A stretch of DNA of 64,000 bases from contig NC_022664.1 in the NCBI RefSeq assembly GCF_000485905.1, positions 1,116,001-1,180,000 on the forward strand. Reading direction: 5' to 3'. The notes beneath the pieces were generated by a model. It worked only from the letters and a program-made list of their open reading frames with translations. It was not told the origin of the DNA and did not search any database. The position numbers and the translations under genes are program-made. The stretch comes from Spiribacter curvatus (GTDB taxonomy: Bacteria > Pseudomonadota > Gammaproteobacteria > Nitrococcales > Nitrococcaceae). This document shows, piece by piece, positions 6,391 through 29,333 of the stretch (its first letter is position 1; each line of letters opens with the position of its first letter).

Positions 6391-7267
6391 CTATTGGGCG
6401 GTCAGGATCATCTTAATGGCCTTTTCATTCGCGGCGTCACCGAAAACGTCATAGGCCTTTTCAATGTCGTTCAGCGGGAAGTGGTGAGTGATGAGGCTTT
6501 TCGCATCGACACCTCCCGCCTGCAGGGTGCGCATCAGCACCGTAATGGTGTTGGTGTTCACCAGCCCGGTCCGGACCGTGACGTTCTTGATCCAGAGATT
6601 CTCGAGGTGGAACTCCACACTGGTGCCATGCACCCCGATATTAGCGATGTGACCGCCGGCTTTGACGATGCTCTGGCAGGTGTCGAAGGTTTCGGGGATG
6701 CCGACCGCCTCCATGGCCACATCAACGCCCTCTCCGTCCGTCATTTGCATGATCTGCTCGACGGCACTGCCACTGATGGTGTCGGTGGCACCCAGGGACC
6801 GGGCCGTGGCAAGACGGTTTTCGTCGGGATCGATCATGATCAGACGCGCCGGTGAGTAGAACCGGGCGGTGAGCAGTGCGGCAAGCCCGATGGGTCCGGA
6901 CCCCACGATGGCGACGGTGTCACCGAGGTTGACCTCACCGTTCAGTGCACCGATTTCATGCCCGGTCGGCATGAGGAATGCGAACCGCCTCTGCCTGCGT
7001 CCCATCGATCCGATGGCCCAGAATCCAGCCCCCATCGCGGCATTGCGGGTACATGCCCTGTTTGCAGTAGTCACAACGTCCGCAGGAGGTAATGCAGGAA
7101 ATGAGCACACGGTCACCGGGCTGAAGGGTTGAGACCCCATCGCCGATCGACTCGACAATCCCCACGCCCTCATGGCCGAGTGCACGGCCCGGTTCGCAGG
7201 TCGGCACATCGCCCTTGAGGATATGCAGATCGGTCCCGCAGATCGTGGTGTGGGTCATACGCACTGC
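6391..7267 (-). pseudogene. zinc-dependent alcohol dehydrogenase, main fragment (5' end missing, internal deletion and frameshift)
   Basis: In one frame, 6956-7267 encodes AVRMTHTTICGTDLHILKGD, then the GHEGVG zinc-site region, the four-Cys structural zinc loop (CGRCDYCKQGMYPQC) and ends IPHADRA-stop. A second frame from about 6975 down to 6391 continues MPTGHEIGALNGEV, the Rossmann motif VGSGPIGLAALL and the rest of a medium-chain dehydrogenase. About 21 residues between the two halves are missing. The DNA CTCATGCCGAC (6965-6975) reads HAD in one frame and LMPT in the other, so the loss probably happened between two copies of that word. The first 30 codons are also absent; a matching fragment lies at 29241-29333. 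Surely non-functional as an alcohol dehydrogenase. Confidence 0.88.
7262..7267. repeat. CACTGC junction word, left side of the 22-kb block
   Basis: The hexamer CACTGC marks the point where the main dehydrogenase fragment starts and directly abuts the stop codon of adenine deaminase (7268-7270). The same hexamer occurs at the other break (29247-29252). Six bases could be a target duplication, microhomology or chance. Confidence 0.5.
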
Positions 7268-8932
7268 TCAGTCTGTGAGCAGGGACACGAATTCGAATCG
7301 CTCACCGTCGAAAAGGCCGCGATCGCTGAGCTTGAGTGCCGGAATGACCAGCAGTGCCATGAATGACAGCGTCATGAAAGGCGCTGACAGCGGCGTGCCG
7401 AGCGCATGTGCCAGTGAGACCAGCGCCTCGTGGCGATGCGCCATCGTGTCGCCGTCGACGTTGCTCATCAACCCAGCGACCGGTAATGCGAGTTGATCGC
7501 TGCCGGCCGCCCCAACGGCGGCGATACCGCCCTGCATGTCGATCACCTGGTTCAGTGCCTCGCTCACCCATTCCGCACTGCTGCCGACTGCAATGACATT
7601 GTGCGAGTCATGGGCGATCGAGCCCGCGATCGCCCCATCGCGCAAACCGAAACCGTGGATGAACGCCACGGCGGGTGGCGTGACCCGATAGCGGTTCACG
7701 ACCGCCAGCATGAGGACATCATTGGCCGGGTCGGGCGTCGGGCGGTTGGCTTTCCAGGTCGGTTTCAGGCGTGACTCCGTTGTATCCAGCGCGCCGTCCC
7801 GGCAGTTGATCACGCGCAGTCTCAGTGATGGATTGTCGGGATCGCCTTCCGGTAGCGCAGCTTCAAGTGCCGACGCCGTCACGGGTCGCGCGTTGAAGCG
7901 ATTGATGGTCGGTGACGGCCGATAGGTCTGTTGGCTCTCGCCATGCCCGGCCACCCTTTCGCCGCCGATCCAGGTCGCGAGGACATTCAACCGGTCGGGG
8001 TGGTCGACCCGAATCGCGTCCATCCGATCGCCGATCCGCAGCTGGCCGACCGGGAGGCTGTAGTGCGACACGGGATGGCTGCAGGCGGCGCGGAGTACAT
8101 CGAAACGGTCGTGGCCCGCGGCGATGGCACGGGCGGCGATGACATTGATATGCCCCGCTGCCAGATCATCGGGATGGAGGTCGTCGGTACAGAACATGAT
8201 CCGCTGGGGATGGGTATCGAGCAGTTCGTGCAGCGCCTCGAAGTTGCGGGCGGCAGAGCCCTCGCGAATGCTGATCCACATCCCCGCCGCGAGCTTGTCC
8301 TCAGCCTCTGCGCGGGTCGCGCACTCATGATCGTTATCGATCCCCGCATCGGCATAGCACTGCGCGGCGTCGCTGCGAAGCCCCGGTGCATGGCCATCAA
8401 CCGTTCGACCGAAGCGCCTGGCAACCGCGATCTTGTCCATGACTCCGGTCTCGCGCTTGAGCACGCCGGAGAAGTCCATGACCTCTGCAAGATGCCCAGT
8501 CGTGTCGTCGCCGATCAGCCGCTTGATGTGCGCCGCGTTGAGTTCTGCGCCAGCCGTCTCATACGCGGTAGCGGGTACACAGGCAGGGGCACCGAAATGG
8601 ATCTGGATGGGGCTCCACCGTGCATCCGAGGCCATGTAATGGATGCCCTCGGTGCCTAGAATATTGGCGATCTCATGGGGGTCGGCCACTGCCGCCACAG
8701 TGCCATGACGACTGGCAACGCGGCCGAACTCGGCGGGCGTGAGCATAGTGCTCTCGACATGTACATGAGCATCCACAAACCCGGGTAGGACGTAGTCCAG
8801 CGTCTCATCCGGTGGTCCGAGTATGGCCACGGCGACGATACGCCCGCCCGCCCAGTGGATGGACGCGGCATGGATGCGCCGCGCCTCAAGATCGACCAGA
8901 TTGGCCTGGATCATACCTTCGTCCATCGTCAT
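7268..8932 (-). CDS. ade: adenine deaminase
   Basis: 554 aa, close to the usual 570-590 for Ade. It hydrolyses adenine to hypoxanthine plus ammonia in purine salvage, using a binuclear metal site of the amidohydrolase superfamily. Visible motifs are LPGFVDAHVHVESTML (first metal His pair), AVADPHEIANILG, VDGHAPG, the DNDHE segment and FCTDDLHPDDL (catalytic Asp region); the C-terminal adenine deaminase domain holds SIAHDSHNVIAVG. Several Met codons are available near 8932 (MTMDEGM). The stop codon touches the rearrangement junction at 7267. It lies divergent from fabI. Confidence 0.93.
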   Translation of the reverse strand: MTMDEGMIQANLVDLEARRIHAASIHWAGGRIVAVAILGPPDETLDYVLPGFVDAHVHVESTMLTPAEFGRVASRHGTVAAVADPHEIANILGTEGIHYMASDARWSPIQIHFGAPACVPATAYETAGAELNAAHIKRLIGDDTTGHLAEVMDFSGVLKRETGVMDKIAVARRFGRTVDGHAPGLRSDAAQCYADAGIDNDHECATRAEAEDKLAAGMWISIREGSAARNFEALHELLDTHPQRIMFCTDDLHPDDLAAGHINVIAARAIAAGHDRFDVLRAACSHPVSHYSLPVGQLRIGDRMDAIRVDHPDRLNVLATWIGGERVAGHGESQQTYRPSPTINRFNARPVTASALEAALPEGDPDNPSLRLRVINCRDGALDTTESRLKPTWKANRPTPDPANDVLMLAVVNRYRVTPPAVAFIHGFGLRDGAIAGSIAHDSHNVIAVGSSAEWVSEALNQVIDMQGGIAAVGAAGSDQLALPVAGLMSNVDGDTMAHRHEALVSLAHALGTPLSAPFMTLSFMALLVIPALKLSDRGLFDGERFEFVSLLTD

Positions 8933-9043
8933 CCCCGGATTATAGGCCGCGTGGATTGGCGACAGATACCCCGGTCACGATTGCGGATGACCAGCGGTTA
9001 TTGTTAAGTGTGCAGCGCAACATTGGTTAACAGGGAGTCATCC

Positions 9044-9832
9044 ATGACTGATCAAGTCGCCGGTGGCGCGTTCTCGCTCAATGGTCGGGTGGGTGTCATC
9101 ACCGGCCTCGCCAACGAAAACAGTATTGCCTTCGGCTGCGCGCGGGCGCTTTCCGCCCAAGGCGCGGAATTTATTGTGTCGTATGCCAGTGAAAAGGCCG
9201 AGCGCTTTGTCATGCCGCTCGCGGCAGCCATGGGTAACCCGGAATACCAGCTCGCGGACGTCCAGGATCCGGCATCGCTCGAGGCGCTGTTCGACCGGGC
9301 GCGTCAGCGCTGGGGACGTCTCGATTTCGTGATCCACTCGATAGCCTTTGCGCCGCTCAGCGAGTTGCAGGGACGGCTCACGGATACAACTCGGGACGGG
9401 TTTGCGTTGGCCATGGATGTCTCTTGCCACTCATTCATGCGCATGGCGAGGCTTGCCGAGCCACTGATGAGTGAGGGCGGCAGTCTGATCTGCATGACCT
9501 ACCACGGCGCCGATCAGGCCGTTGAGAATTACAATCTCATGGGGCCGGTCAAGGCGGCGCTGGAGTCATCCACGCGCTATATGGCGGCGGAGCTTGGGCC
9601 CAGGGGGATCCGGGTCAATGCCATATCGCCTGGGCCGATTCGCACACGGGCCGCTTCCGGGCTCAAGGATTTCGAGGCACTGGCACAGGATGGTGAAGCC
9701 CACTCGCCCCTTCGTCGCCTTGTGACGGTGGATGACATCGGCCACACGGCGGCCTACCTCATCGCTGATGCTGGCGCCGGCGTTACGGGCGGGATTCACT
9801 ACGTGGATGCAGGTCACCATGTCCAGTTCTGA
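9044..9832 (+). CDS. fabI: enoyl-[acyl-carrier-protein] reductase (NADH), FabI type
   Basis: 262 aa short-chain dehydrogenase-like enzyme that reduces trans-2-enoyl-ACP in the last step of fatty-acid elongation. The cofactor motif is GLANENSIAFG (FabI form of the glycine motif). The active site NYNLMGPVKAALE gives the Tyr-x6-Lys pair typical of FabI, and ISPGPIRTRAASG follows. AACAGGGAGTCATCC supplies a good ribosome binding site for the ATG at 9044; an open frame extends upstream but is not needed. The stop codon overlaps the next gene by 14 bases, so translation is likely coupled. The 111 bases upstream should carry the promoter shared with the genes that follow. Confidence 0.93.
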   Translation: MTDQVAGGAFSLNGRVGVITGLANENSIAFGCARALSAQGAEFIVSYASEKAERFVMPLAAAMGNPEYQLADVQDPASLEALFDRARQRWGRLDFVIHSIAFAPLSELQGRLTDTTRDGFALAMDVSCHSFMRMARLAEPLMSEGGSLICMTYHGADQAVENYNLMGPVKAALESSTRYMAAELGPRGIRVNAISPGPIRTRAASGLKDFEALAQDGEAHSPLRRLVTVDDIGHTAAYLIADAGAGVTGGIHYVDAGHHVQF

Positions 9833-11246
9833 AGCAACAATCGAAAACCGGACCTTTGACGAGATCGCGGTGGGTGACTCTGCAACGCTCGAAAAGCGTC
9901 TCACGATGGAAGACATCAAGCTTTTCGCGGTGATGTCCGGTGACGTCAATCCAGCCCATGTCGATGAGGAATTCGCACGCAGCAGCTTTTTCCATGAGCT
10001 GATCGCCCATGGCATGTGGGGCGGGGCATTGATCTCAACCGTGCTGGGCACAAAGCTGCCCGGGCCGGGGACGATCTATCTGGGACAGACGCTGCGATTT
10101 CGCGGGCCGGTCACGCTGGGCGATCAGATCCGGATTACGGTAACGGCGACGGAAAAGGATGAGCGTAAGGGCCAGGTTGTCTTCGACTGCGAATGCCGCA
10201 ATCAGGAGGATGCCCTTGTGCTTGACGGTGAGGCGCGGGTGCTCGCGCCTAAGGAAAAGGTCAGCCGTCCGCGAGCGGTCATGCCAACGATCCGGATGGC
10301 TGAACAGGGGAAGCTCTCGGAGATGCTGGCCGCCGCGGATGACCCTGAGCCGATGACCGCAGCGGTGGTCCATCCCGTGGATATCGAGAGCATCCAGGCC
10401 GTCGACCAGGCGGTCGGGCGGGGGCTGATCCGGCCGATCCTGATCGGGCCGATGGCGCGCATGCAGTCAGCGGCGGACGATGCCGGTGTCGATATCAGTG
10501 GGTTCGAACAGGTCGCTGTCCGCCACAGTCATGGCGCCGCCGAGACCGCGGTGGGCATGGCCGAGGCCGGTGATGTCGGTGCGGTGATCAAGGGGGGACT
10601 GTCCACCGATGAACTGCTCGGCAAGCTGGTGGATCCGGGCAATGGCTTGCGCACCGAGCGGATCCCCAGTCAGGTGATGGCCTTCGATGTGCCGACTTAC
10701 CCGCGTCCGCTGATGATTTCCGACCCGCTGGTGAATATTCACCCAGGGCTGTTCGAGAAACGCGATATCGTGCGCAACGCCGTGGAGCTCGCCCACGCAC
10801 TGAAAATCCACGAGCCGCGTGTTGCGATGCTTTCATCCTCCGAATCCATCGATCCCAAGCTCTCCTCAACGCTGGATGCCGCGGCAATCTGCAAGATGGC
10901 CGACCGCGGGCAGGTGGCAGGGGCGGTCATCGATGGACCGATGGCGTTTGATGCCGCCATTTCTGCGGCCACCGCCCGGGCTCGGGCGCTTGAATCGCCC
11001 GTGGCGGGGCGGGCCGATGTGCTGGTCGCACCGGATCTTGAGGCGGCGAGTATGCTGGTCAAGCAGCTCAGCCATCTCGCGGATGCCCGCGGTTCCGGGC
11101 TATTGGTCGGGTTGCGGGTGCCGGTGGTGATGAGCGGTCGTGACGACAATGTCCCCAGCCGGTTGACGGGCATACGTCTTGCCCATCGCTATCTTGCCTA
11201 CCTGCAGCATGCGGGACGTGACGCCATGGCCGCTGCGGTCAGCTGA
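9819..11246 (+). CDS. MaoC-like enoyl-CoA hydratase fused to phosphate acetyl/butyryltransferase
   Basis: 475 aa. Residues 1-150 are a MaoC/(R)-hydratase hot-dog domain, with AVMSGDVNPAHVDEEFA as the catalytic Asp/His loop and FFHELIAHGMWGGALIST. Residues 165-475 are a phosphate acyltransferase domain (AVVHPVDIESIQAV, GAVIKGGLSTDELLG, RPLMISDPLVNIHPG, VLVAPDLEAASML). This fusion is known as bifunctional enoyl-CoA hydratase/phosphate acetyltransferase. It probably links hydroxyacyl-CoA or short-chain acyl-CoA metabolism with acyl phosphate. The ATG at 9819 lies inside the end of fabI. The rhodopsin gene starts 25 bases after the stop. Confidence 0.88.
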   Translation: MSSSEATIENRTFDEIAVGDSATLEKRLTMEDIKLFAVMSGDVNPAHVDEEFARSSFFHELIAHGMWGGALISTVLGTKLPGPGTIYLGQTLRFRGPVTLGDQIRITVTATEKDERKGQVVFDCECRNQEDALVLDGEARVLAPKEKVSRPRAVMPTIRMAEQGKLSEMLAAADDPEPMTAAVVHPVDIESIQAVDQAVGRGLIRPILIGPMARMQSAADDAGVDISGFEQVAVRHSHGAAETAVGMAEAGDVGAVIKGGLSTDELLGKLVDPGNGLRTERIPSQVMAFDVPTYPRPLMISDPLVNIHPGLFEKRDIVRNAVELAHALKIHEPRVAMLSSSESIDPKLSSTLDAAAICKMADRGQVAGAVIDGPMAFDAAISAATARARALESPVAGRADVLVAPDLEAASMLVKQLSHLADARGSGLLVGLRVPVVMSGRDDNVPSRLTGIRLAHRYLAYLQHAGRDAMAAAVS

Positions 11247-11271: not shown

Positions 11272-12033
11272 ATGGACCTTTCGACACTCAGCGTTGGTCA
11301 GTACGACTTCATTGCAAATGCCTTTTCCTTTGGCCTTGCAGTGATGGTCGCCACGACCATTTTCCTGTGGTTCTCGCGCAGCCACGTTGCTCCCGCCTAC
11401 AAGATGGCGATCACCATCTCAGGCCTTGTCACCGCCATTGCCGGCTACCACTACCTGCAGATCATGCTGTCGTGGGAATCGGCCTTCTCCGTTACGAACG
11501 GCACCATCGAGACCACCGGATATGCCTACAACCAGGCTTATCGGTACGTCGACTGGCTGCTGACCGTGCCGCTGCTGCTCGTTGAGCTGATCCTCGTCAT
11601 GCGGCTTTCGCGGAGCGAGACCGTGTCCAAGAGCGTCACGCTCGGTGGTGCGGCAGCCCTCATGATCATCCTCGGTTATCCGGGTGAGGTCGCTGAAGGC
11701 GGCGCAACGCGCTTCCTCTTCTGGGTTCTGTCGATGATTCCGTTCGTGTACATCGTCTACCAGCTCGTGGTGGGCCTGAAGGGCTCGATCAGCAAGCAGC
11801 CTGAAAACGTGCGCGGACTGATCAACGGTGCGGCGACGCTCGTTGTCGTGTCCTGGCTGTTCTACCCGATCGTCTATCTGTTCCCGCTCATCGGCCTGAC
11901 CGGCGGCGCCGCCGTCACGGCAGTCGAGGTGGGCTATACGGTCGCGGACATCGTCGCCAAGGCCGTGTTCGGTATCCTCATCCTGACGATCGCCATGCGT
12001 AAGTCAGAGGCTGAGAGCAACGCCAGCGCCTGA
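11272..12033 (+). CDS. light-driven proton-pumping microbial rhodopsin
   Basis: 253 aa, seven membrane helices. Helix C reads RYVDWLLTVPLLLVELIL, so the counter-ion/acceptor is D94, the Thr of the motif is T98 and the donor is E105: the DTE pattern of outward proton pumps. L102 at the colour-tuning site predicts green absorption. H60 (AGYHYLQ) is the usual partner of the counter-ion. Helix G has D226 and the retinal Lys K230 (ADIVAKAVFG). In helix E, aligned with bacteriorhodopsin, W151 stands where antenna-binding xanthorhodopsins have Gly, so a bound carotenoid antenna is not expected. It is followed by carotenoid genes that supply beta-carotene, but no 15,15'-dioxygenase gene is nearby. 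The start at 11272 gives a XR-like N-terminus (MDLSTLSVGQYDF). Confidence 0.95.
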   Translation: MDLSTLSVGQYDFIANAFSFGLAVMVATTIFLWFSRSHVAPAYKMAITISGLVTAIAGYHYLQIMLSWESAFSVTNGTIETTGYAYNQAYRYVDWLLTVPLLLVELILVMRLSRSETVSKSVTLGGAAALMIILGYPGEVAEGGATRFLFWVLSMIPFVYIVYQLVVGLKGSISKQPENVRGLINGAATLVVVSWLFYPIVYLFPLIGLTGGAAVTAVEVGYTVADIVAKAVFGILILTIAMRKSEAESNASA

Positions 12034-12050
12034 TCGGTCTGAACCGATCA
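12031..12050 (+). terminator. hairpin at the rhodopsin stop codon
   Basis: TGATCGGT (12031-12038, including the stop codon) pairs with ACCGATCA (12043-12050) around CTGA. It is the first of two hairpins between rhodopsin and crtE. There is no U-tract, so mRNA stabilisation or partial attenuation is as likely as termination. Confidence 0.45.
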
Positions 12051-12074
12051 GCTGGCATTGCCAGTGCTGAACCC

Positions 12075-12103
12075 GTGGATGCCGGGCGCCGTCCGGCATC
12101 CAC
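12075..12103 (+). terminator. 11-bp perfect hairpin between rhodopsin and crtE
   Basis: GTGGATGCCGG (12075-12085) pairs perfectly with CCGGCATCCAC (12093-12103) with a 7-base loop. It lies 30 bases before the crtE start. It could reduce read-through from rhodopsin into the carotenoid genes or protect the upstream transcript. No U-run follows. Confidence 0.55.
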
Positions 12104-12132
12104 TTCACCGGAAAAGCGTGAGGAACAACTCC

Positions 12133-13101
12133 GTGGCCGCAGCCGACGTCAGTCAATCACCGATACCTAGCGCAGGCGCGAACGCCTGGCAGGCCAGTCT
12201 GGCGCCCGAGGTCACCCTCCCGTCTCTCTCATCAGTCGACCAACTCATGATCGACTGCCTCGCCGGCATGCGAGCCACACCGGCTCGGGATGCTGCGATC
12301 TATCATCTTCAAACCGGCGGTCATCGGATGCGTGCGAAACTGGCCTTGGCCAGTAGCGCCGGCCGGATGGACGTCGGTGACGGCAGAGCGGCGGCCGCCG
12401 CCTGCGAGTTATTGCATAACGCGTCTCTTATTCACGACGACATCAGCGATCACGATCAGTATCGCCGGGGCCAGCACTCCGTGCGTGCCCTGTATGGCGA
12501 CGATGTCGCCCTCTGCGCGGGGGATCTGCTCCTCACGGCGGCATTCCAGACCGCCGCAGGTATCCATGAACCGGGTGTCGCCCAGCGACTCACCGGCTTC
12601 ATGGCTGACACAGCCGCGCGTGTCATCGGTGGGCAGAGCGTTGAGCTCGACGCTCGCAGCAACCGTCGGGGGATGGGCGTTGCTGACTACCTTGCCGCCA
12701 CCCGCGAGAAAACGGCACCGCTCATCGAGCTGGCGCTGAATGTCGGGATCAGTAACGCGACTGAGGCACCCTACCCGGCAGCGCTGGGCCGACAGCTCGC
12801 GGAAGCGATTGGGCTTGCCTACCAGATTCTTGATGATCTCGACGATCTGGAGGCGGTGGAGGATCTGGAGCACCTGCATCCACTGCACGCCTGGTGGCAG
12901 CATCAGCCTCGTCCACTCGTCCGCCAGGGGCATCACCGGAAAACCCGCCAGCGCTGCCTGACGCATGTCCAGGCCGCACTGGCGCGGGCACAACGCCTGG
13001 CCGGTCGACTCCCCGAACCACTCGCAACCGACGTTTTGCAACTGATCCATCGACTGTCCCGCCAATCGCGGATAGTCTCCGATCGAGCCCTGACACGCTA
13101 A
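12133..13101 (+). CDS. crtE: geranylgeranyl diphosphate synthase
   Basis: 322 aa polyprenyl synthase that condenses isopentenyl diphosphate to the C20 precursor of carotenoids. It has HNASLIHDDISDHDQYRRG (first Asp-rich region, DDxxD) and LAYQILDDLDDLEA (second Asp-rich region), plus the Lys of LQTGGHRMRAKLALA for diphosphate binding. The GTG at 12133 is favoured because GAGGAA precedes it by 7 bases; an upstream ATG at 12058 would run through the hairpin. The C-terminal third is less conserved. It is the first gene of a tight crtE-crtI-crtB-crtY operon. Confidence 0.9.
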   Translation: MAAADVSQSPIPSAGANAWQASLAPEVTLPSLSSVDQLMIDCLAGMRATPARDAAIYHLQTGGHRMRAKLALASSAGRMDVGDGRAAAAACELLHNASLIHDDISDHDQYRRGQHSVRALYGDDVALCAGDLLLTAAFQTAAGIHEPGVAQRLTGFMADTAARVIGGQSVELDARSNRRGMGVADYLAATREKTAPLIELALNVGISNATEAPYPAALGRQLAEAIGLAYQILDDLDDLEAVEDLEHLHPLHAWWQHQPRPLVRQGHHRKTRQRCLTHVQAALARAQRLAGRLPEPLATDVLQLIHRLSRQSRIVSDRALTR

Positions 13102-13118
13102 AAAGGGGTGAAGCCCGA

Positions 13119-14591
13119 ATGCATTCCCTGATCATGGGCGGCGGTTTCGGCGGCATCGCCGCTGCACTGCGGCTGCGGGCACGCGGTCACGACGTCACGC
13201 TTATCGATCGTTGTCCGCGACTGGGCGGACGGGCTCAGGTCTTCGAGCGCGACGGCTATCGACACGACGCCGGCCCGACGGTCATTACCGCCCCGTTCCT
13301 GTTTGCTGAACTCTTCGAGCTTTTCGGTGAATCACTGCATGATCACCTCGAGCTGCGCCCGCTCGATCCGTGGTACCGGTTCCGTTTCCCGGACCATTCA
13401 CAGTTCGACTATGCCCCCGGCATGGAGCGGATGGAGTCGGAGATCGCACGCTTCAATCCGGATGATGTCGCCGGGTATCACGGGTTACTCGCCGAGTCCC
13501 GCGAGCTGTTTGAGATCGGTTTCCGCGAACTCGGCGATCAGCCGTTCCACCGGGCCTCGTTCATGGCGCGTCAGGCCCCCCGGCTTCTGCGTCTGCGCTT
13601 CGATCGCAGCGTCTGGACAATGGTGTCGCGGCACATCAAGCACCCCTACCTCCGGCGGGCGCTGTCATTACAGCCCCTGCTGGTCGGCGGCAACCCGTTT
13701 GATACCACCTGCATCTACGGCCTGATCCACTATCTCGAGCGTGAGTGGGGCGTCCACTTCGCGATGGGCGGGACCGGCGCACTGGTCGACGTCCTTGCCA
13801 ATCTTCTCGAACGTCAGGGCGTCCGGGTTGAGAACGGTCGGAGCATCACCGCGGTCCACCGCGATGGTCGACGCATCACTGGCGCGAGTCTCGACGACGG
13901 CCGCCGGATCTCGGCCGATCATTTCATCTCTAACCTCGACCCCATGCATCTCTACGGTGAGCTCATGGACCCGGCCCCCATGGCCGCCCGGATCAAGCGT
14001 CGCATGGCGCAGACCTCGATGGGGCTGTTCGTGCTCTACTTTGGTACCGATTGCCAGTACCCGGATGTGGCCCATCACACGATCTGGCTGGGTGATCGCT
14101 ACAAGGAACTGCTGCGGGATATCTTCGACCGACGCGTCCTCTCGGACGATTTCTCGCTCTATCTACACCGCCCCACCGCGACCGATTCGAGCTTCGCGCC
14201 GGCCGGCCATGACAGCTTCTATGTGCTCGCGCCGGTGCCCAACCAGCTCGGCAACATCGACTGGTCAGTGGAGGGGCCGAAGCTGCAGGCGCGTATCGTT
14301 GAGGCGCTGGAGGCAACCATCATGCCTGGGCTGAGCCAGCATATCCGCGCCGAATTCCATATGACGCCGGACAATTTCCGGGAGAACTACCAGAGCGTGC
14401 ACGGCAGTGGCTTCAGCGTTGCGCCGCTGTTCCGGCAATCGGCCTGGTTCCGATTCCACAATCAGGCCGAGGGTCTGGACAACCTCTACCTGGTCGGTGC
14501 CGGCACACACCCAGGCGCGGGAATGCCCGGTGTTCTCTCCAGCGCCAAGGTCCTTGAACGGCTGTTCCCCGAGGGCACGGAGGCGGCGTGA
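13119..14591 (+). CDS. crtI: phytoene desaturase
   Basis: 490 aa FAD enzyme that introduces double bonds into phytoene to give lycopene. The N-terminal dinucleotide fold is MGGGFGGIAAALRLRARGH, followed by the acidic residue of TLIDR; RLGGRAQVFERDGYRHDAGP is the bacterial CrtI signature, and the C-terminal FAD motif is YLVGAGTHPGAGMPGVLSSA. AAGGGGTGA lies before the ATG at 13119. It overlaps crtB by the four bases GTGA. It probably performs four desaturations because a lycopene cyclase follows, though the step number cannot be read from the sequence. Confidence 0.95.
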   Translation: MHSLIMGGGFGGIAAALRLRARGHDVTLIDRCPRLGGRAQVFERDGYRHDAGPTVITAPFLFAELFELFGESLHDHLELRPLDPWYRFRFPDHSQFDYAPGMERMESEIARFNPDDVAGYHGLLAESRELFEIGFRELGDQPFHRASFMARQAPRLLRLRFDRSVWTMVSRHIKHPYLRRALSLQPLLVGGNPFDTTCIYGLIHYLEREWGVHFAMGGTGALVDVLANLLERQGVRVENGRSITAVHRDGRRITGASLDDGRRISADHFISNLDPMHLYGELMDPAPMAARIKRRMAQTSMGLFVLYFGTDCQYPDVAHHTIWLGDRYKELLRDIFDRRVLSDDFSLYLHRPTATDSSFAPAGHDSFYVLAPVPNQLGNIDWSVEGPKLQARIVEALEATIMPGLSQHIRAEFHMTPDNFRENYQSVHGSGFSVAPLFRQSAWFRFHNQAEGLDNLYLVGAGTHPGAGMPGVLSSAKVLERLFPEGTEAA

Positions 14592-18778: not shown

Positions 18779-18847
18779 TGGTGATTTCCTCCTTTTGGAA
18801 TCATGACGAAAGATACGCCCGGCTCTGAGGCAGGTCAATCGGGCATA

Positions 18848-18864
18848 TGCACCACGGTGGTGCA
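18848..18864. promoter_or_regulatory. palindrome between panD and tonB
   Basis: TGCACCAC and GTGGTGCA surround a single G in the 190-base space between the ends of panD and the opposing tonB gene. Both genes end here, so it may be part of a terminator structure rather than an operator. The rest of this gap shows no gene. Confidence 0.3.
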
Positions 18865-18968
18865 GAGTGCGCCGCTGCCGTTGAATTGACCACGCTAACC
18901 CTCTGAGGTTCGGACACCTTATTGATTTGCGTCAAATTCAGGGCTTTGAATCATTGCGCTGGGGACCC

Positions 18969-20508: not shown

Positions 20509-21158
20509 GGCTCACTGCGGTTCTGTGCCGGTGCCGGGCGCTGCGTGAAGATCTGTGTGATCAGGCTGTCCATCTCCTCGCCAAGCCGCTGAATGCGCGC
20601 CTCGATCCAGCTCACAGCGGCGACCGCGGGGATTGCGACTGCGAGGCCGACCGCAGTGGTGGACAGAGCCTGCCAGATGCCCGCGGACAGCACGGCCGGA
20701 TCGACGCCAGAGCGGCTATTCTCCAGTGCCTGAAAGGCATCGATCATCCCAAGCACGGTTCCGAGAAGACCGAGCAGGGGGGCCAGGCTGGCGATCAACT
20801 CCAGCGGGCGAAGACCGCCGCGGAGCGCGCGTAGCTGATCATTGCCGAGCCGCGCGATTTCCTCACGCAACCGGGCCTCGTCCGTGGTGCTGTCGCGCAG
20901 CCCATCAATGGCGCGGCCGGCGAGTCGGGCGACGGGGGTACCGGCCGTCCTTGCCAGATCGCTCGCGCGGCTTGGATCGCCGCTGGTGAAGGCGGATACG
21001 GCGGCTCGTGCCGCGGCCAGTCGATGGCTGCGGGTGAATGCGAACTGGCCGAATTTAGCGATCACGATGCCAAGAGCGATCACCGACATCGCGACAAGGA
21101 TCGCGATCACCGGACCACCCACTGAATAGAGCGCGATGAATCGATCAATAGCTGTCAT
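20505..21158 (-). CDS. exbB: ExbB/TolQ/MotA family proton channel
   Basis: 217 aa, three membrane helices. The first is GGPVIAILVAMSVIALGIVIA; the second and third are in the conserved block LELIASLAPLLGLLGTVLGMIDAF and ALSTTAVGLAVAIPAVAAVSWI. It forms the pentameric channel around the ExbD helices that energises TonB. It is the first gene of the four-gene operon. The promoter should lie in the 76 bases before it toward uup. TolQ is the alternative, but the tonB gene in the operon favours ExbB. Confidence 0.9.
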   Translation of the reverse strand: MTAIDRFIALYSVGGPVIAILVAMSVIALGIVIAKFGQFAFTRSHRLAAARAAVSAFTSGDPSRASDLARTAGTPVARLAGRAIDGLRDSTTDEARLREEIARLGNDQLRALRGGLRPLELIASLAPLLGLLGTVLGMIDAFQALENSRSGVDPAVLSAGIWQALSTTAVGLAVAIPAVAAVSWIEARIQRLGEEMDSLITQIFTQRPAPAQNRSEP

Positions 21159-21234
21159 GAGAAAAGCATACGTCAGCGTGACGCTGTCATGAAATTGCCT
21201 CTGTTAGACTGATGGCTTGTCCTAAGGAGCCGGA

Positions 21235-23091
<1,857 letters not shown>

Positions 23092-23126
23092 GGAAAACTC
23101 GATTTCATCAAGGCGAATCAGACTCT

Positions 23127-24563
23127 ATGGCCCGTGAACATGAATATGACCTGATCATCGTCGGCGGCGGCGTCGGCGGACTGGTCACAGCGAGCGTCGC
23201 CGGCCAACTCGGTCTTGATGTCGTGCTCGTCGAGCGTGGCCCTCGACTCGGCGGTGACTGTCTCCATCATGGCTGCATCCCCAGCAAGTCGCTCATCCAC
23301 TCCGCGGCAGTGGCTCATGCGGCCCGCGACGCAGGTCGTCTGGGCATTGACGCACGGCTTGGTGAAACCGATCTGGGCGCGGTCATGGATCGAGTGCAGT
23401 CGGTGATCGACGAGATTCAGGTCCATGACGATCCAACCCGCTTCCGGGATTACGGGGTCGATGTGCGATTCGGCGAGGCGCATTTCATCGATGCACGCAC
23501 CATTCGCGTCAAGGGTCAGCGCCTGCGCGCTCGGCGCTTTGTCATCGCAACCGGGTCACGCCCCCGCATCCCGGATATACCCGGGATTGAGACGATCCCG
23601 GTACTGACCAACGAGACGCTCTTCGCCGAACGCAGTCTCCCCGGCCATCTGGCCGTTGTGGGTGGTGGGCCGATTGGCACGGAGATGGCACAGGCGTTCT
23701 CGCGACTTGGCAGTCGTGTCACCCTGCTCGAGGCAGGACCGCAGATACTGCCTCGCGATGATGCCGGACTCGCTGCATCGCTGGCCGAGCACCTTCGCGG
23801 CGAGGGGGTCGATCTGCGCCTGTCGACCCACGTCAGTCGCGCTGAACCCATCGATGGCGGCGCGCGCCTGACGCTTTCCGGCAGCGCCGATGACACCACC
23901 GCGCTGGACGTCAACCGCGTCCTGATCGCCGCCGGGCGGCGTGCCAATACCGACTCACTCAACATTGAAGCCGCCGGCCTCGCCTGCGGCGACGACGGCC
24001 GTCTCAGCGTCGACCCGCGTCTGCGGACCAGTCGACATCACATTTATGCGATTGGCGATTGCGCCGGGCCTTATCCGTTCACCCACATGGCGGAATACCA
24101 GGCTGGCATCGTCATCAGTAATGCCCTGTTCCGGCTGCCGCAGCGGGTCGATTACCGGGCGGTGCCGTGGGTGACCTACACCGATCCCGAGCTGGCCCAT
24201 GTGGGGATGAGCGCCGCCGATGCCAAAGCCGCCGGGATTGACTGCCAGTGCGTTGACTTCCCGCTCGCCGGTGTCGATCGAGCCATCGCCCAGGGGGCAA
24301 CCACCGGTGAGCTGAAACTGGTGATCCGACGCGGACGGATCATCGGCGCCAGTCTGCTCGCCCCGCATGCCGGTGAGATCATCCACGAGCTGGCGCTCGC
24401 CATTGCCGCGCGCATTCCGCTGCGACGGCTCGCGGGAATGGTGCATGCCTACCCCACCCTCGCCCAGATCACCAAACGGGCAGCAGGTCGCCATTTCGCG
24501 ACCCAACTGTTCTCGCCTGGCACGCGCCGACTGGTGCGCTGGATAAACCGGATCCTGCCATGA
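23127..24563 (+). CDS. FAD-dependent disulfide oxidoreductase (mercuric reductase-like), left copy
   Basis: 478 aa class I flavin disulfide reductase. N-terminal FAD motif LIIVGGGVGGLVTAS; redox-active pair in RLGGDCLHHGCIPSKSLIHS; NAD(P)H motif VVGGGPIGTEMAQAF; second FAD motif IYAIGDCAGPYPFTHMAEYQ; C-terminal HAYPTLAQITK with the His that serves the dimer partner. It is neither a typical lipoamide dehydrogenase nor a MerA (no N-terminal HMA domain, no C-terminal Cys pair). Such enzymes are commonly paired with TVP38/TMEM64 proteins, as here (4-base overlap). This copy has no recognisable ribosome binding site because the sequence before the ATG belongs to the old uup start. Confidence 0.9.
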   Translation: MAREHEYDLIIVGGGVGGLVTASVAGQLGLDVVLVERGPRLGGDCLHHGCIPSKSLIHSAAVAHAARDAGRLGIDARLGETDLGAVMDRVQSVIDEIQVHDDPTRFRDYGVDVRFGEAHFIDARTIRVKGQRLRARRFVIATGSRPRIPDIPGIETIPVLTNETLFAERSLPGHLAVVGGGPIGTEMAQAFSRLGSRVTLLEAGPQILPRDDAGLAASLAEHLRGEGVDLRLSTHVSRAEPIDGGARLTLSGSADDTTALDVNRVLIAAGRRANTDSLNIEAAGLACGDDGRLSVDPRLRTSRHHIYAIGDCAGPYPFTHMAEYQAGIVISNALFRLPQRVDYRAVPWVTYTDPELAHVGMSAADAKAAGIDCQCVDFPLAGVDRAIAQGATTGELKLVIRRGRIIGASLLAPHAGEIIHELALAIAARIPLRRLAGMVHAYPTLAQITKRAAGRHFATQLFSPGTRRLVRWINRILP

Positions 24564-25225
24564 TGAGTCGATCGGCACGCCGCGTCCTGCTCCTCGCCGG
24601 AGTCGCGATCGTTATTATTGCCGGCCTTTTGATGCGGGATAACCTGAGTCGTGAGGCCCTCACCCACTGGCTCAATGGCCTCGGCCCGTGGGCGGGTGTT
24701 GTCTTTATCGCAAGCTACGCCGCCGGCGCTGTCGCGTTTCTGCCCGGACTGGTCTTCACCATCGCCGGTGGTGCCCTGTTCGGTCCATTATGGGGAACGG
24801 TCTATAGCCTCATCGGAGCGACCAGTGGCGCCACACTCGCGTTCCTCGCCGCACGGCATGGCGTGGGAGACTGGGTAGCGCAGCGAACCGGTGCGCGCCT
24901 CGGGCGCTTACAGGCAGGAATCGATCGGGAGGGGTGGCGCTTCGTTGCTTTAATGCGCCTCGTGCCGCTGGTCCCCTTCAACCTCCTCAACTACGCGCTT
25001 GGCCTGACCCGGATCCGCCTTTCCGTGTATGCGCTGACCAGCTTCATCACCATGTCACCCGGCGCCCTTGCCTATGTCTGGGTGGGCCATGCGGGCCGTC
25101 AGGCCATCGCCGGTGGCGACAATCGACTCCAGGCTGGACTCATCGCGATCGCGCTGATCGCCACGCTCGCACTGCTGCCACGGATTATCCGCAGCATTCG
25201 CGGCGGCGATCCGGCGGAGCGCTGA
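24560..25225 (+). CDS. TVP38/TMEM64 (DedA-like) membrane protein, left copy
   Basis: 221 aa, about five to six membrane segments. The SNARE-associated/VTT core is visible: VAFLPGLVFTIAGGALFGPLWGT (split in two pieces in the helix-loop), then ATSGATLAFLAARHGVGDWV and the motif RLVPLVPFNLLNYALGLTRI. Proteins of this family are thought to move or scramble lipids and to be important for membrane potential or stress. It overlaps the reductase gene by ATGA. In this orientation it is followed after 28 bases by the hydrolase-OsmC gene, which is probably the original operon order. Confidence 0.9.
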   Translation: MMSRSARRVLLLAGVAIVIIAGLLMRDNLSREALTHWLNGLGPWAGVVFIASYAAGAVAFLPGLVFTIAGGALFGPLWGTVYSLIGATSGATLAFLAARHGVGDWVAQRTGARLGRLQAGIDREGWRFVALMRLVPLVPFNLLNYALGLTRIRLSVYALTSFITMSPGALAYVWVGHAGRQAIAGGDNRLQAGLIAIALIATLALLPRIIRSIRGGDPAER

Positions 25226-25253
25226 ATATGATCACCCCCGCGGGAGAGCGCCC

Positions 25254-26609
25254 ATGAGCACTGAGAAAATCACCTTCACCGGTCATAACGGTGACACCCT
25301 CAACGCCAGACTCGATGTGCCGGATGGCCCGATCCGCGCCGCCGCGCTATTCGCGCACTGCTTTACCTGCTCAAAGGACATCCCCGCTGCGCGCCGGATT
25401 GCCGGTCGGCTGGCCGCCCAGGGCATCGCAGTGCTGCGTTTCGATTTCACCGGGCTGGGTCACTCCGAGGGCGAGTTTGAGAACACCAACTTCAGCTCCA
25501 ATGTCGAAGATCTGCAGCGTGCGGCGAGCTATCTCGCCGATCATGTCGCCGCCCCACAGCTTTTGATCGGTCATTCCCTGGGTGGCTCAGCGGTGATCAA
25601 GGCCGCGCCCCTGATCGATGCCGCCCGTGCTGTGGTGACCATCGCTGCACCGGCGGATCCAAGCCATGTCTCCAAGCTTTTCGCCGATCAGCTGGCGACA
25701 ATCGACGCGCAGGGCGAGGCCGAAGTCAATCTGGCCGGACGGCCATTCCGTATCCGCCAGCAGTTTATCGAGGATATTACTGAAGCGAAGCTCGACGATG
25801 CCCTGAAACACCTGGATGCCGCGCTGCTCGTGCTCCACTCGCCGCAGGACACGATGGTCGGAATCCGCAACGCTGCGGAAATCTTCCAGGGCGCGATGCA
25901 CCCGAAGAGCTTCATCACCCTGGATCATGCCGATCACCTGATCACCCGCGGCACCGACGCTGACTATGCCGCCGATGTGATTGGCGCCTGGGCGGTGCGG
26001 TACCTACAGATGGCGCAGGAGCCCGCCTCCGCCGAGACACCGGAGGGAGTGACGCGGGTCTCGGAGGTGGATCCGGCAGGTTTCCGTCAGGCGATTACCG
26101 TGTCCGGACAGCATCTGCTGACCGCGGATGAGCCAGTCAAGATGGGGGGCAGCGATAAGGGGCCTTCCCCCTATCAGCTGGTCGCCGCGGGACTGGGCGC
26201 ATGCACCAGCATGACGATCCGCATGTATGCCCGACGCAAGCGGATCGCTCTCGATCACGTCTTTACCGATGTCACCCACAATAAGGAACATCGCACCGAC
26301 TGCGATCACTGTGATGAATCCGGGGCAAGAGTCGACGTGTTCCAGCGAAGGATCCATCTGAGCGGCGATCTTGGCGCAGAGGATCGTCAGCGCCTGCTCG
26401 AGATCGCCGACAAATGCCCGGTCCACCGGACGCTGGAATCGAGCATAGTCATCGACACGGAGCTGATCGACGATATTGAACGTCAGCGCTCCGCCGGATC
26501 GCCGCCGCGAATGCTGCGGATAATCCGTGGCAGCAGTGCGAGCGTGGCGATCAGCGCGATCGCGATGAGTCCAGCCTGGAGTCGATTGTCGCCACCGGCG
26601 ATGGCCTGA
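25254..26609 (+). CDS. alpha/beta hydrolase-OsmC fusion protein with chimeric C-terminal tail
   Basis: 451 aa. Residues 1-260 are an alpha/beta hydrolase (nucleophile elbow LIGHSLGGSAVIKA, later LDHADHLI with the catalytic His). Residues 275-405 are an OsmC peroxiredoxin-like domain, with the two active Cys in GLGACTSMTIRM and DKCPVHRTLE. Known fusions of this type end about here (near 405-410 aa). The reading frame crosses into the right repeat arm at 26483, so residues 410-451 (from RQRSAGSPPRML onward) are antisense of the TVP38 gene and not family sequence. GGGAGAGCGCCC is a good ribosome binding site. Probably active in peroxide or thiol stress. Confidence 0.88.
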   Translation: MSTEKITFTGHNGDTLNARLDVPDGPIRAAALFAHCFTCSKDIPAARRIAGRLAAQGIAVLRFDFTGLGHSEGEFENTNFSSNVEDLQRAASYLADHVAAPQLLIGHSLGGSAVIKAAPLIDAARAVVTIAAPADPSHVSKLFADQLATIDAQGEAEVNLAGRPFRIRQQFIEDITEAKLDDALKHLDAALLVLHSPQDTMVGIRNAAEIFQGAMHPKSFITLDHADHLITRGTDADYAADVIGAWAVRYLQMAQEPASAETPEGVTRVSEVDPAGFRQAITVSGQHLLTADEPVKMGGSDKGPSPYQLVAAGLGACTSMTIRMYARRKRIALDHVFTDVTHNKEHRTDCDHCDESGARVDVFQRRIHLSGDLGAEDRQRLLEIADKCPVHRTLESSIVIDTELIDDIERQRSAGSPPRMLRIIRGSSASVAISAIAMSPAWSRLSPPAMA

Positions 26610-27148
26610 CGGCCCGCATGGCCCACCCAGACATAGGCAAGGGCGCCGGGTGACATGGTGATGAAGCTGGTCAGCGCATACACGGAAAGGCGGATCCGGG
26701 TCAGGCCAAGCGCGTAGTTGAGGAGGTTGAAGGGGACCAGCGGCACGAGGCGCATTAAAGCAACGAAGCGCCACCCCTCCCGATCGATTCCTGCCTGTAA
26801 GCGCCCGAGGCGCGCACCGGTTCGCTGCGCTACCCAGTCTCCCACGCCATGCCGTGCGGCGAGGAACGCGAGTGTGGCGCCACTGGTCGCTCCGATGAGG
26901 CTATAGACCGTTCCCCATAATGGACCGAACAGGGCACCACCGGCGATGGTGAAGACCAGTCCGGGCAGAAACGCGACAGCGCCGGCGGCGTAGCTTGCGA
27001 TAAAGACAACACCCGCCCACGGGCCGAGGCCATTGAGCCAGTGGGTGAGGGCCTCACGACTCAGGTTATCCCGCATCAAAAGGCCGGCAATAATAACGAT
27101 CGCGACTCCGGCGAGGAGCAGGACGCGGCGTGCCGATCGACTCATCAT
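26483..27148 (-). CDS. TVP38/TMEM64 membrane protein, right copy
   Basis: 221 aa, identical in sequence to the copy at 24560-25225. It overlaps the reductase start-wise by ATGA and is the last gene of the DUF3047-reductase-TVP38 operon in this orientation. Its stop codon is the exact end of the duplicated segment; in the other orientation this end is followed by the hydrolase-OsmC gene. Two identical copies would double the dose if both are transcribed, but the left copy may lack translation signals. Confidence 0.9.
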   Translation of the reverse strand: MMSRSARRVLLLAGVAIVIIAGLLMRDNLSREALTHWLNGLGPWAGVVFIASYAAGAVAFLPGLVFTIAGGALFGPLWGTVYSLIGATSGATLAFLAARHGVGDWVAQRTGARLGRLQAGIDREGWRFVALMRLVPLVPFNLLNYALGLTRIRLSVYALTSFITMSPGALAYVWVGHAGRQAIAGGDNRLQAGLIAIALIATLALLPRIIRSIRGGDPAER

Positions 27149-28581
27149 GGCAGGATCCGGTTTATCCAGCGCACCAGTCGGCGCGTGCCAGGCGAGAACA
27201 GTTGGGTCGCGAAATGGCGACCTGCTGCCCGTTTGGTGATCTGGGCGAGGGTGGGGTAGGCATGCACCATTCCCGCGAGCCGTCGCAGCGGAATGCGCGC
27301 GGCAATGGCGAGCGCCAGCTCGTGGATGATCTCACCGGCATGCGGGGCGAGCAGACTGGCGCCGATGATCCGTCCGCGTCGGATCACCAGTTTCAGCTCA
27401 CCGGTGGTTGCCCCCTGGGCGATGGCTCGATCGACACCGGCGAGCGGGAAGTCAACGCACTGGCAGTCAATCCCGGCGGCTTTGGCATCGGCGGCGCTCA
27501 TCCCCACATGGGCCAGCTCGGGATCGGTGTAGGTCACCCACGGCACCGCCCGGTAATCGACCCGCTGCGGCAGCCGGAACAGGGCATTACTGATGACGAT
27601 GCCAGCCTGGTATTCCGCCATGTGGGTGAACGGATAAGGCCCGGCGCAATCGCCAATCGCATAAATGTGATGTCGACTGGTCCGCAGACGCGGGTCGACG
27701 CTGAGACGGCCGTCGTCGCCGCAGGCGAGGCCGGCGGCTTCAATGTTGAGTGAGTCGGTATTGGCACGCCGCCCGGCGGCGATCAGGACGCGGTTGACGT
27801 CCAGCGCGGTGGTGTCATCGGCGCTGCCGGAAAGCGTCAGGCGCGCGCCGCCATCGATGGGTTCAGCGCGACTGACGTGGGTCGACAGGCGCAGATCGAC
27901 CCCCTCGCCGCGAAGGTGCTCGGCCAGCGATGCAGCGAGTCCGGCATCATCGCGAGGCAGTATCTGCGGTCCTGCCTCGAGCAGGGTGACACGACTGCCA
28001 AGTCGCGAGAACGCCTGTGCCATCTCCGTGCCAATCGGCCCACCACCCACAACGGCCAGATGGCCGGGGAGACTGCGTTCGGCGAAGAGCGTCTCGTTGG
28101 TCAGTACCGGGATCGTCTCAATCCCGGGTATATCCGGGATGCGGGGGCGTGACCCGGTTGCGATGACAAAGCGCCGAGCGCGCAGGCGCTGACCCTTGAC
28201 GCGAATGGTGCGTGCATCGATGAAATGCGCCTCGCCGAATCGCACATCGACCCCGTAATCCCGGAAGCGGGTTGGATCGTCATGGACCTGAATCTCGTCG
28301 ATCACCGACTGCACTCGATCCATGACCGCGCCCAGATCGGTTTCACCAAGCCGTGCGTCAATGCCCAGACGACCTGCGTCGCGGGCCGCATGAGCCACTG
28401 CCGCGGAGTGGATGAGCGACTTGCTGGGGATGCAGCCATGATGGAGACAGTCACCGCCGAGTCGAGGGCCACGCTCGACGAGCACGACATCAAGACCGAG
28501 TTGGCCGGCGACGCTCGCTGTGACCAGTCCGCCGACGCCGCCGCCGACGATGATCAGGTCATATTCATGTTCACGGGCCAT
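27145..28581 (-). CDS. FAD-dependent disulfide oxidoreductase (mercuric reductase-like), right copy
   Basis: 478 aa, identical to the copy at 23127-24563. The ATG at 28581 lies 6 bases after the DUF3047 stop codon, with GGGAGAAT overlapping that stop as ribosome binding site. This is the copy with intact expression signals. Together with TVP38 it may form a membrane-associated redox unit; what it reduces is unknown. Confidence 0.9.
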   Translation of the reverse strand: MAREHEYDLIIVGGGVGGLVTASVAGQLGLDVVLVERGPRLGGDCLHHGCIPSKSLIHSAAVAHAARDAGRLGIDARLGETDLGAVMDRVQSVIDEIQVHDDPTRFRDYGVDVRFGEAHFIDARTIRVKGQRLRARRFVIATGSRPRIPDIPGIETIPVLTNETLFAERSLPGHLAVVGGGPIGTEMAQAFSRLGSRVTLLEAGPQILPRDDAGLAASLAEHLRGEGVDLRLSTHVSRAEPIDGGARLTLSGSADDTTALDVNRVLIAAGRRANTDSLNIEAAGLACGDDGRLSVDPRLRTSRHHIYAIGDCAGPYPFTHMAEYQAGIVISNALFRLPQRVDYRAVPWVTYTDPELAHVGMSAADAKAAGIDCQCVDFPLAGVDRAIAQGATTGELKLVIRRGRIIGASLLAPHAGEIIHELALAIAARIPLRRLAGMVHAYPTLAQITKRAAGRHFATQLFSPGTRRLVRWINRILP

Positions 28582-28587
28582 AGCGGG

Positions 28588-29244
28588 TTATTCTCCCAGT
28601 AATCGGATGGTCCCGTAGATCGCCTCGGCGCGATCGTCGGTGTCGTCACAGTCGGTCATGATCGCCAGTGTATCGATTTCGGTGATGTCGCGATCATGAA
28701 AACGTGCGAAATCCTCCCGTAAGTTGCGCCGATGAGTCCGCCAGCCAGCACCCTCGTCGCTGCCGTCAACGGCAACCATTGTCGCCTGATCGGCATAGGC
28801 GTTGGACCAGTGATCGCCCACTCCGGCCTGAGTGGTTGAGACATAGTTCATTGCCCGGGTCCGCCAGCGCAGGATGGGGTGTTCATCCACGGCGTAGAGT
28901 CGTGCGGCATAATCATCGCCGGATTTCTGGCGCGGGGTACCGCGACTGATCGGTTCAACAATACGCCAGCGCCACTCGATGATCGGCGTGCGGGTCAGGT
29001 CGATCCCCTCGCGGTAGACGAGTCCCGACGCGCTACCCTCATCACATTCGGCGCGCACGCCTCGATGTGCGTTGCGCTGCGAGAGCGTGTAGCCGGTCTC
29101 GCCGCTGAAGGAGTGGCGCTCCCAGCCGATGATGGTCGCGGGGTCGAAGGATGTCGGTGTCTGTGCCAGTGCCGTCGTCGGTAGGATTGCCGGGATCGAC
29201 AGGATGACGGTCAACGCGCGGATAACGAATCGTCTGCGACTCAT
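28588..29244 (-). CDS. DUF3047 family exported protein
   Basis: 218 aa. Tat-like or Sec signal: MSRRRFVIRALTVILSIPAI, cleavage near ALAQTP. The mature part has the DUF3047 pattern: IIEWRWRI, GDDYAARLYAVDE, NYVSTTQAG, then TDCDDTDDRAEAIYGTIRL at the end. Members are beta-rich periplasmic proteins of unknown role. The ATG overlaps the stop codon of a 30-codon alcohol dehydrogenase fragment (GCATGA), and the only good ribosome binding site is that of the fragment, so DUF3047 is probably translated by coupling to it. It heads the operon with the reductase and TVP38 genes. Confidence 0.85.
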   Translation of the reverse strand: MSRRRFVIRALTVILSIPAILPTTALAQTPTSFDPATIIGWERHSFSGETGYTLSQRNAHRGVRAECDEGSASGLVYREGIDLTRTPIIEWRWRIVEPISRGTPRQKSGDDYAARLYAVDEHPILRWRTRAMNYVSTTQAGVGDHWSNAYADQATMVAVDGSDEGAGWRTHRRNLREDFARFHDRDITEIDTLAIMTDCDDTDDRAEAIYGTIRLLGE

Positions 29245-29333
29245 GCCACTGCGTCGGTTGGCCGCTCGACAGCGGGTTCCGGTTTATCTTCCCATTGACG
29301 GGCATTTGCGCCGTGAAAAACGAGTGCTTTCAT
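29241..29333 (-). pseudogene. 5' fragment of the zinc-dependent alcohol dehydrogenase
   Basis: From ATG at 29333 the frame reads MKALVFHGANARQWEDKPEP, then AVERPTDAVA and TGA. This is the standard first strand and loop of class-III-like zinc alcohol dehydrogenases, whose next residues would be RMTHTTICGTDL, and exactly those are found at the truncated 5' end of the fragment at 6391-7267. AAGGA lies upstream of the ATG, so its own translation signal is intact. Both breaks lie at the word CACTGC (plus strand). The peptide now acts at most as a leader for DUF3047. Confidence 0.85.
29247..29252. repeat. CACTGC junction word, right side of the 22-kb block
   Basis: Same hexamer as at 7262-7267. 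It ends the match between the alcohol dehydrogenase fragment and its other half, and lies 2 bases from the DUF3047 start codon. Confidence 0.5.

What the first reader, a model, noticed from the sequence alone, without database searches (positions are those of the whole stretch)
6391..29333. One zinc alcohol dehydrogenase gene split by a 22-kb block
Codons 1-30 (MKALVFHGANARQWEDKPEP...TDAV) are at 29241-29333; the continuation RMTHTTICGTDL... begins at 7264, same strand and right order. Both breaks lie at CACTGC (7262-7267 and 29247-29252). Removing 7268-29252 would nearly restore the gene. The block holds core genes (fabI, panD, uup) plus rhodopsin/carotenoid genes and no mobility gene, so this looks like a chromosomal translocation rather than an island.
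Basis: partly seen in the sequence, partly recalled or inferred. Interest (0 to 1): 0.85.

Follow-up and report, generated by a model that had tools for sequence, protein, structure and literature searches.

The report
Chromosome block moved into dehydrogenase gene
In the small genome of a salt-loving bacterium, a 22-kb stretch of ordinary genes appears to have been cut out of one place and pasted, inverted, into an alcohol dehydrogenase gene 42 kb away, leaving a healed scar at the old site and no sign of a transposon; it is a real but not fundamentally new kind of chromosome rearrangement.

Summary
Codons 1-29 of one zinc alcohol dehydrogenase (ADH) lie at 29333-29247 and the rest starts at 7264. 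Of 16 homologues tested, 10 match both pieces, and in 10 of 10 the pieces abut with zero gap. The ADH also carries a 71-nt frameshifting deletion. The genome size is that of Spiribacter UAH-SP71.

The translocation reading is supported, and I found the donor site. In the three other genus genomes with ade (G001, G012, G013; of 14 searched) the block lies between an ABC permease/ATPase pair and a small conserved gene. In the window's genome those neighbours are joined at 1,081,188, 42 kb left of the present block, and the ATPase has lost its stop codon, which overlapped the block's first gene. The three cuts lose at most 1-2 nt, with no target duplication, no shared repeats and no mobility family among 30 window genes scanned. 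Ku was not found in 14 genus genomes. CACTGC at both breaks is chance level.

Inside the block, rhodopsin-panD and uup are each inverted close to start and stop codons, and a two-gene unit is duplicated as a 2.1-kb inverted repeat. No reads were available; this strain was sequenced by Illumina only.

The parts
5554..6375 (+). Left-hand neighbour gene; adjacent to the ADH in S. salinus too
   Evidence: G005 998661-999320 next to ADH at 999333; in G001 the homologue lies about 20 nt from the 29397 homologue
6391..7264 (-). ADH pseudogene, downstream part (codon 30 onward), with a 71-nt frameshifting deletion near 6966-6969
7264..7265 (.). Junction J1: ADH downstream part joined to the 3' flank of ade
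7265..29246 (-). Translocated block (22.0 kb): ade ... DUF3047; inverted relative to the donor site
7268..8932 (-). ade, adenine deaminase; end gene of the block
   Evidence: TIGR01178 above cut-off
9008..11246 (+). fabI and a bifunctional enoyl-CoA hydratase/phosphate acetyltransferase
11272..18778 (+). Rhodopsin, carotenoid genes, MsbA-type ABC transporter and panD; inverted in place relative to G001, G012 and G013, cut at the rhodopsin ATG and the panD stop
18779..18936 (-). Rhodopsin upstream region (with ribosome-binding site) left behind by that inversion
   Evidence: (77% to G001 over 160 nt, 92% to G012 over 76 nt)
18969..21158 (-). tonB, tolR, exbD, exbB-like genes, in the position and orientation seen in G012 and G013 (absent here in G001)
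21190..21234 (-). uup upstream region with ribosome-binding site left behind
21235..23125 (-). uup coding region inverted in place; its own ATG is lost, the listed open frame starts at GTG 23091
23112..25225 (+). Left arm of the inverted repeat (perfect from 23125): FAD oxidoreductase and VTT-domain gene, start codon to stop codon
   Evidence: 5 mismatches, all in the outermost 13 nt
25254..26609 (+). Hydrolase/OsmC gene between the arms; its stop codon is lost and the frame runs into the right arm
26483..28596 (-). Right arm of the inverted repeat
28588..29244 (-). DUF3047 gene; end gene of the block
   Evidence: (PF11249)
29246..29247 (.). Junction J2: DUF3047 start joined to the ADH N-terminal piece
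29247..29333 (-). ADH pseudogene, codons 1-29
29397..29720 (-). Right-hand neighbour gene; about 20 nt from the 5554 homologue in G001
33288..35990 (+). Fused frame: L-lactate permease (to about 35,094) joined to a YihY/BrkB-family membrane protein; third junction J3, from a separate rearrangement

Best explanation
A recent intrachromosomal cut-and-paste translocation. A 22.0-kb segment (DUF3047 ... ade) was released from its earlier place between an ABC ATPase gene and a small conserved gene. The two flanks were sealed at genome position 1,081,188. The fragment was joined, inverted, into a cut between codons 29 and 30 of an ADH gene 42 kb to the right. Shown by comparison: earlier location, closed donor site, target gene, loss of at most 1-2 nt at each of the three cuts, and no repeats, target duplication, Ku or (among genes scanned) mobility gene. 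Inferred: the three pairs of ends were exchanged in one three-break event repaired by Ku-independent (alternative) end joining, rather than by two successive inversions reusing the same joint. Also inferred: the internal flips and the inverted duplication of the block belong to the same period of breakage.
For: Block position: in the three non-window genomes with ade (4 of 14 genus genomes including G000) the block lies between the permease/ATPase and the 156-aa gene; in G012 and G013 the DUF3047-OsmC part is elsewhere. In G000 these neighbours are adjacent, and the scar reads ATPase ...GGCAGCCAT | GTCCAATCACA.... The ATPase stop codon, which overlaps the DUF3047 ATG in G001, is gone, so the ATPase frame now runs on into the next gene. 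An unrooted tree groups G000 with G001 (0.999) against G012+G013 and the rest, so among these four the window's position is the derived one. Target: ADH is intact with the same left neighbour in S. salinus; the halves tile 10 of 10 homologues that match both, of 16 examined. Shared sequence between J1 and J2 is at chance level. Ku 0 of 14 genomes, 9 of them at least 90% complete. No tRNA in the window; block GC 0.63-0.65, window range 0.61-0.67. Recency: ADH pieces versus S. salinus dN 0.049, dS 1.69 (near saturation); repeat arms identical over 2,101 nt.
Against: No sequencing reads could be examined. The published UAH-SP71 genome was Illumina 100-bp paired-end only, finished with primers at contig ends, so the 2.1-kb perfect repeat could not be spanned. 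Only one relative (G001) has the ATPase-DUF3047 adjacency, so the left donor cut rests on a single sequence. In the more distant G005 (S. salinus) the rhodopsin cluster starts only 2.3 kb from the intact ADH, and in G004 the lactate permease lies 1.8 kb from uup; the two loci were thus close in some lineages, and the long-term history is more complicated than a single move. A pair of inversions is not strictly excluded.
Confidence: 0.76

Rival explanations
1. Two successive inversions: the first between the ATPase/DUF3047 boundary and the ADH, the second between that new joint and the ade end, together yielding the same order.
For: Inversions are common; single-segment inversions occurred inside this block. 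The junction set is formally reachable by two inversions.
Against: The second inversion would have to cut the new ATPase/ADH joint again within 1-2 nt, because no ADH base is missing or duplicated relative to homologues and the donor scar loses almost nothing. No repeat at the joints would guide this.
Confidence: 0.13
2. Assembly artefact: contigs of a short-read assembly were ordered and oriented wrongly.
For: UAH-SP71 had Illumina paired-end reads only, and gaps were closed with oligonucleotides designed on contig ends. A 2.1-kb perfect inverted repeat is present.
Against: The three translocation junctions lie in sequence without long repeats in the 160 kb searched, and a misassembly would have to make a near base-exact closed donor site as well as a base-exact split of ADH. 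The ADH and permease deletions look like biological decay.
Confidence: 0.08
3. A mobile element or genomic island carried the block (integrase- or transposase-driven insertion).
For: A discrete block interrupts a gene, with a closed donor site.
Against: No target duplication, no shared core sequence, no tRNA, no mobility family among the 30 window genes scanned, ordinary GC, and block genes resident at a fixed site in relatives.
Confidence: 0.03

Closest known systems
Intrachromosomal translocation of gene blocks in bacteria (survey PMC12863080; abstract and passages seen)
   Same: A block of resident genes relocated within the chromosome; in that survey translocations are about as frequent as inversions.
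   Different: That survey ties most events to transposable elements and defines translocations as keeping orientation; here the block is inverted, no element was found and the closed donor site is resolved to 1-2 nt.
Illegitimate recombination / alternative end joining in bacteria (general knowledge, recalled; PMC11372144 seen only as title and start of abstract in a listing)
   Same: Joins with 0-1 nt of shared sequence and no Ku.
   Different: Recalled mostly as deletions; here three pairs of ends are exchanged with almost no loss.
Inverted duplications formed at double-strand breaks (PMC10622511, title and start of abstract in a listing only)
   Same: The FAD/VTT pair is duplicated as a 2.1-kb inverted repeat flanking 1.26 kb.

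Membership tests
Intrachromosomal translocation | Block has a different, earlier location in relatives | tested here: met
   G001, G012 and G013 (G012 and G013 lack the DUF3047-OsmC part at that place)
Intrachromosomal translocation | Earlier location is empty and sealed in the genome under study | tested here: met
   scar at G000 1,081,188
Intrachromosomal translocation | New location is uninterrupted in relatives | tested here: met
   intact ADH next to the same neighbour in S. salinus; the site without ADH and without the block in G001, G012 and G013
Intrachromosomal translocation | Physical support by reads over the joints | not testable with these tools
   no reads held
Transposon or genomic island | Integrase or transposase in or beside the block | tested here: not met
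   none among 30 distinct window genes scanned; the 1,084-1,116 kb stretch was only listed as open frames, not scanned against families
Transposon or genomic island | Target-site duplication or att core at both ends | tested here: not met
Ku-dependent non-homologous end joining | Ku gene present | tested here: not met
   0 of 14 genomes (9 at least 90% complete); among 14 control genomes it rings only in Bacillus subtilis
Homologous recombination between repeats | Repeats at the exchanged ends | tested here: not met
   six pairwise comparisons of 60-nt joints, longest shared word 8 nt (the 95th percentile of random pairs); J1 and J2 share 6 (random mean 5.9)

The most novel reading that the evidence does not exclude
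A localized shattering of a bacterial chromosome. The 22-kb move, the in-place inversions of rhodopsin-panD and uup, the start-to-stop inverted duplication of the FAD/VTT pair and the loss of the OsmC stop happened in one burst of double-strand breaks at gene starts and ends, repaired without Ku and with almost no loss of DNA: a bacterial counterpart of chromothripsis.
Probability: 0.17. Interest if true: 0.75.

Novelty: new member of a known kind. Interest (0 to 1): 0.45.

Why it matters
Bacterial translocations are usually inferred from gene order, without joints. Here the donor scar, both insertion joints and the broken target gene are all readable in one streamlined genome with few insertion sequences (5 in Table 1 of PMC3832224) and no Ku found. 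That makes it a clean test case for how gene blocks move without mobile elements. It also shows a rhodopsin gene separated from its own upstream region, which predicts altered rhodopsin expression in this strain.

Tried and rejected
Paralogue origin of the N-terminal ADH piece: rejected for the three own-genome ADH loci compared; one search found six ADH_N places, one of them the window's own, and two were not fetched. CACTGC as a target duplication or recombination core: rejected. Tandem duplication followed by deletions: rejected because ADH shows neither overlap nor loss and the donor is closed. A simple inversion: rejected because both ADH parts keep the same strand. Ku-dependent joining: not supported.

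Literature: chromothripsis with bacteria listed 12 of 855 papers, none by title on a bacterial chromosome. Spiribacter with rearrangement (11 papers) and with translocation and genome (15 papers) and Spiribacter curvatus (4 papers) were seen as listings only; no title describes this event. In PMC3832224 I read passages, which speak of high synteny. Searches were uninformative: the listed papers do not mention Spiribacter. So I know of no description, but full texts were not read.

Not settled: how rhodopsin and uup are transcribed now; whether J3 (a second, larger move of the region around 1,084-1,151 kb) was one or several events.
Full report
What is there. The window is bases 1,116,001-1,180,000 of a single-contig genome of 1,926,631 bp, the size given for Spiribacter sp. 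UAH-SP71 in Table 1 of PMC3832224 (passages read; the later name S. curvatus is recalled). G005, at 1,739,487 bp, matches S. salinus M19-40 in the same table. One zinc alcohol dehydrogenase is split: codons 1-29 at 29333-29247 and codon 30 onward from 7264. Of 16 homologous places in other genomes, 10 match both pieces, and in 10 of 10 the pieces abut with a gap of 0 nt; the 6 most distant give no N-terminal match. Three own-genome paralogues do not match the N-terminal piece; two others were not fetched. The downstream piece has in addition lost 71 nt near 6966-6969 with a shift of frame.

Where the block came from. ade occurs in 4 of 14 genus genomes. In the other three (G001, G012, G013) it ends a block that starts beside an ABC permease/ATPase pair and is followed by a 156-aa gene. 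In G001 the block runs DUF3047-OsmC-uup-rhodopsin...panD-fabI-ade; in G012 and G013 the DUF3047-OsmC part lies elsewhere. In the window's genome the permease (1,079,306-1,080,536) and the 156-aa gene (1,081,258-1,081,725) are neighbours, with the ATPase between them. The scar lies at 1,081,188, where homology to the ATPase side stops and sequence resembling the 3' flank of ade begins. The ATPase stop codon overlapped the DUF3047 start in G001; here the ATPase frame runs on to 1,081,333. The permease has lost about 437 bp relative to G001 and G013 (coordinates). An unrooted tree of 13 concatenated proteins (3 of them missing in G005) separates G000+G001 from the rest with 0.999, so among the genomes with the block the window's position is the derived one.

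Where it went. In S. salinus the homologue of gene 5554-6375 is adjacent to an intact 343-aa ADH. In G001 the homologues of 5554 and 29397 are about 20 nt apart without ADH; in G013 a different open frame lies between them. The ADH is therefore most likely the resident gene at the insertion point, lost in those relatives.

A result that complicates the picture. In S. salinus the rhodopsin cluster starts 2.3 kb from the ADH, and in G004 uup and the rhodopsin cluster follow the lactate permease by 1.8 kb. The two loci were therefore near each other in more distant lineages. The closed donor scar and the split ADH still require the local move described here, but the long-term order is not reconstructed.

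Joints. Cut a (ATPase/DUF3047), cut b (ade/156-aa gene) and cut c (ADH) each lose at most 1-2 nt, with at most 1 nt of shared sequence at the new joins. Cut a rests on one relative and cut b on diverged ones. Among six pairwise comparisons of the joints the longest shared word is 8 nt. In the 160 kb searched no long repeat other than the internal 2.1-kb one touches these places. No tRNA lies in the window, and GC of the block is like its surroundings. Ku was not found in 14 genus genomes, 9 of them at least 90% complete.

Age. The ADH pieces differ from S. salinus by dN 0.049 and dS 1.69 (319 codons; dS is near saturation). If all non-synonymous change had followed inactivation, that would be about 3% of the divergence, so the gene broke recently. 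The arms of the inverted repeat are identical over 2,101 nt, which is also recent unless gene conversion keeps them alike.

Inside the block. Relative to G001, G012 and G013, rhodopsin-panD (11272-18778) is inverted in place. The cut falls at the rhodopsin ATG, so its upstream region with the ribosome-binding site remains at 18779-18936, and at the panD stop. uup is inverted in place; its upstream region remains at 21190-21234 and its ATG is lost. The FAD oxidoreductase/VTT pair is duplicated as an inverted repeat whose edges are the FAD start codon (within 2 nt) and the VTT stop codon. The OsmC gene has lost its stop. Spacers in this genome are short (median 14-19 nt), so cuts near gene ends are expected. 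The rhodopsin and uup starts, however, have upstream regions of roughly 160 and 75 nt in G012, and both cuts fall within a few nt of the ATG. I did not test this statistically; it is noted after the fact and unexplained.

Third junction. The frame 33288-35990 is an L-lactate permease joined to a YihY/BrkB-family protein. In G001, G008, G010, G012 and G013 the permease is followed by a conserved gene of about 390 aa (lldD by recall); in G000 that gene lies at 731,423-732,580, fused in frame to another gene. The region 1,083.9-1,151.1 kb therefore appears to have been moved as well, by an earlier or separate event.

Mechanism. Three cuts and three joins with almost no loss are most simply one three-break exchange with end joining. 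Two inversions would need near-exact reuse of a fresh joint. Ku-independent end joining is inferred, not shown. Assembly error is the main unresolved caveat, because this strain was sequenced with 100-bp Illumina pairs only. The repeat-free joints and the matching donor scar make it unlikely.

Verdict. Most likely a real, recent, intrachromosomal translocation with a readable donor scar: a clear example of a known kind, in an unusually disturbed 22-kb block.

Noticed in passing
23112-25225 and 26483-28596: 2.1-kb inverted repeat (identical over 2,101 nt) around a 1.26-kb segment with the OsmC/hydrolase gene; could invert by recombination, and could not be spanned by the published short reads.
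   Followed up: partly
11272-18936: Rhodopsin/carotenoid/panD segment inverted so that the rhodopsin gene has lost its own upstream region and ribosome-binding site and now follows fabI and the phosphotransacetylase gene.
   Followed up: partly
21190-23125: uup coding region inverted in place, separated from its upstream region and without its ATG; it abuts the FAD oxidoreductase start head to head.
   Followed up: partly
33288-35990: In-frame fusion of an L-lactate permease with a YihY/BrkB-family protein at a rearrangement joint.
   Followed up: partly
L093 (G000 731417-733432): Counterpart fusion: a membrane-carrier-like gene (by eye) fused in frame to the ~390-aa gene that follows the lactate permease in relatives.
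   Followed up: partly
44902-47587: This three-gene segment sits in G001 between YihY and the 36354 homologue instead of after 42209, so small block moves recur in the genus.
   Followed up: no
L090-L091 (G000 1079306-1081333): Donor-side ABC transporter looks decayed: permease with a deletion of about 437 bp and ATPase without its own stop.
   Followed up: partly
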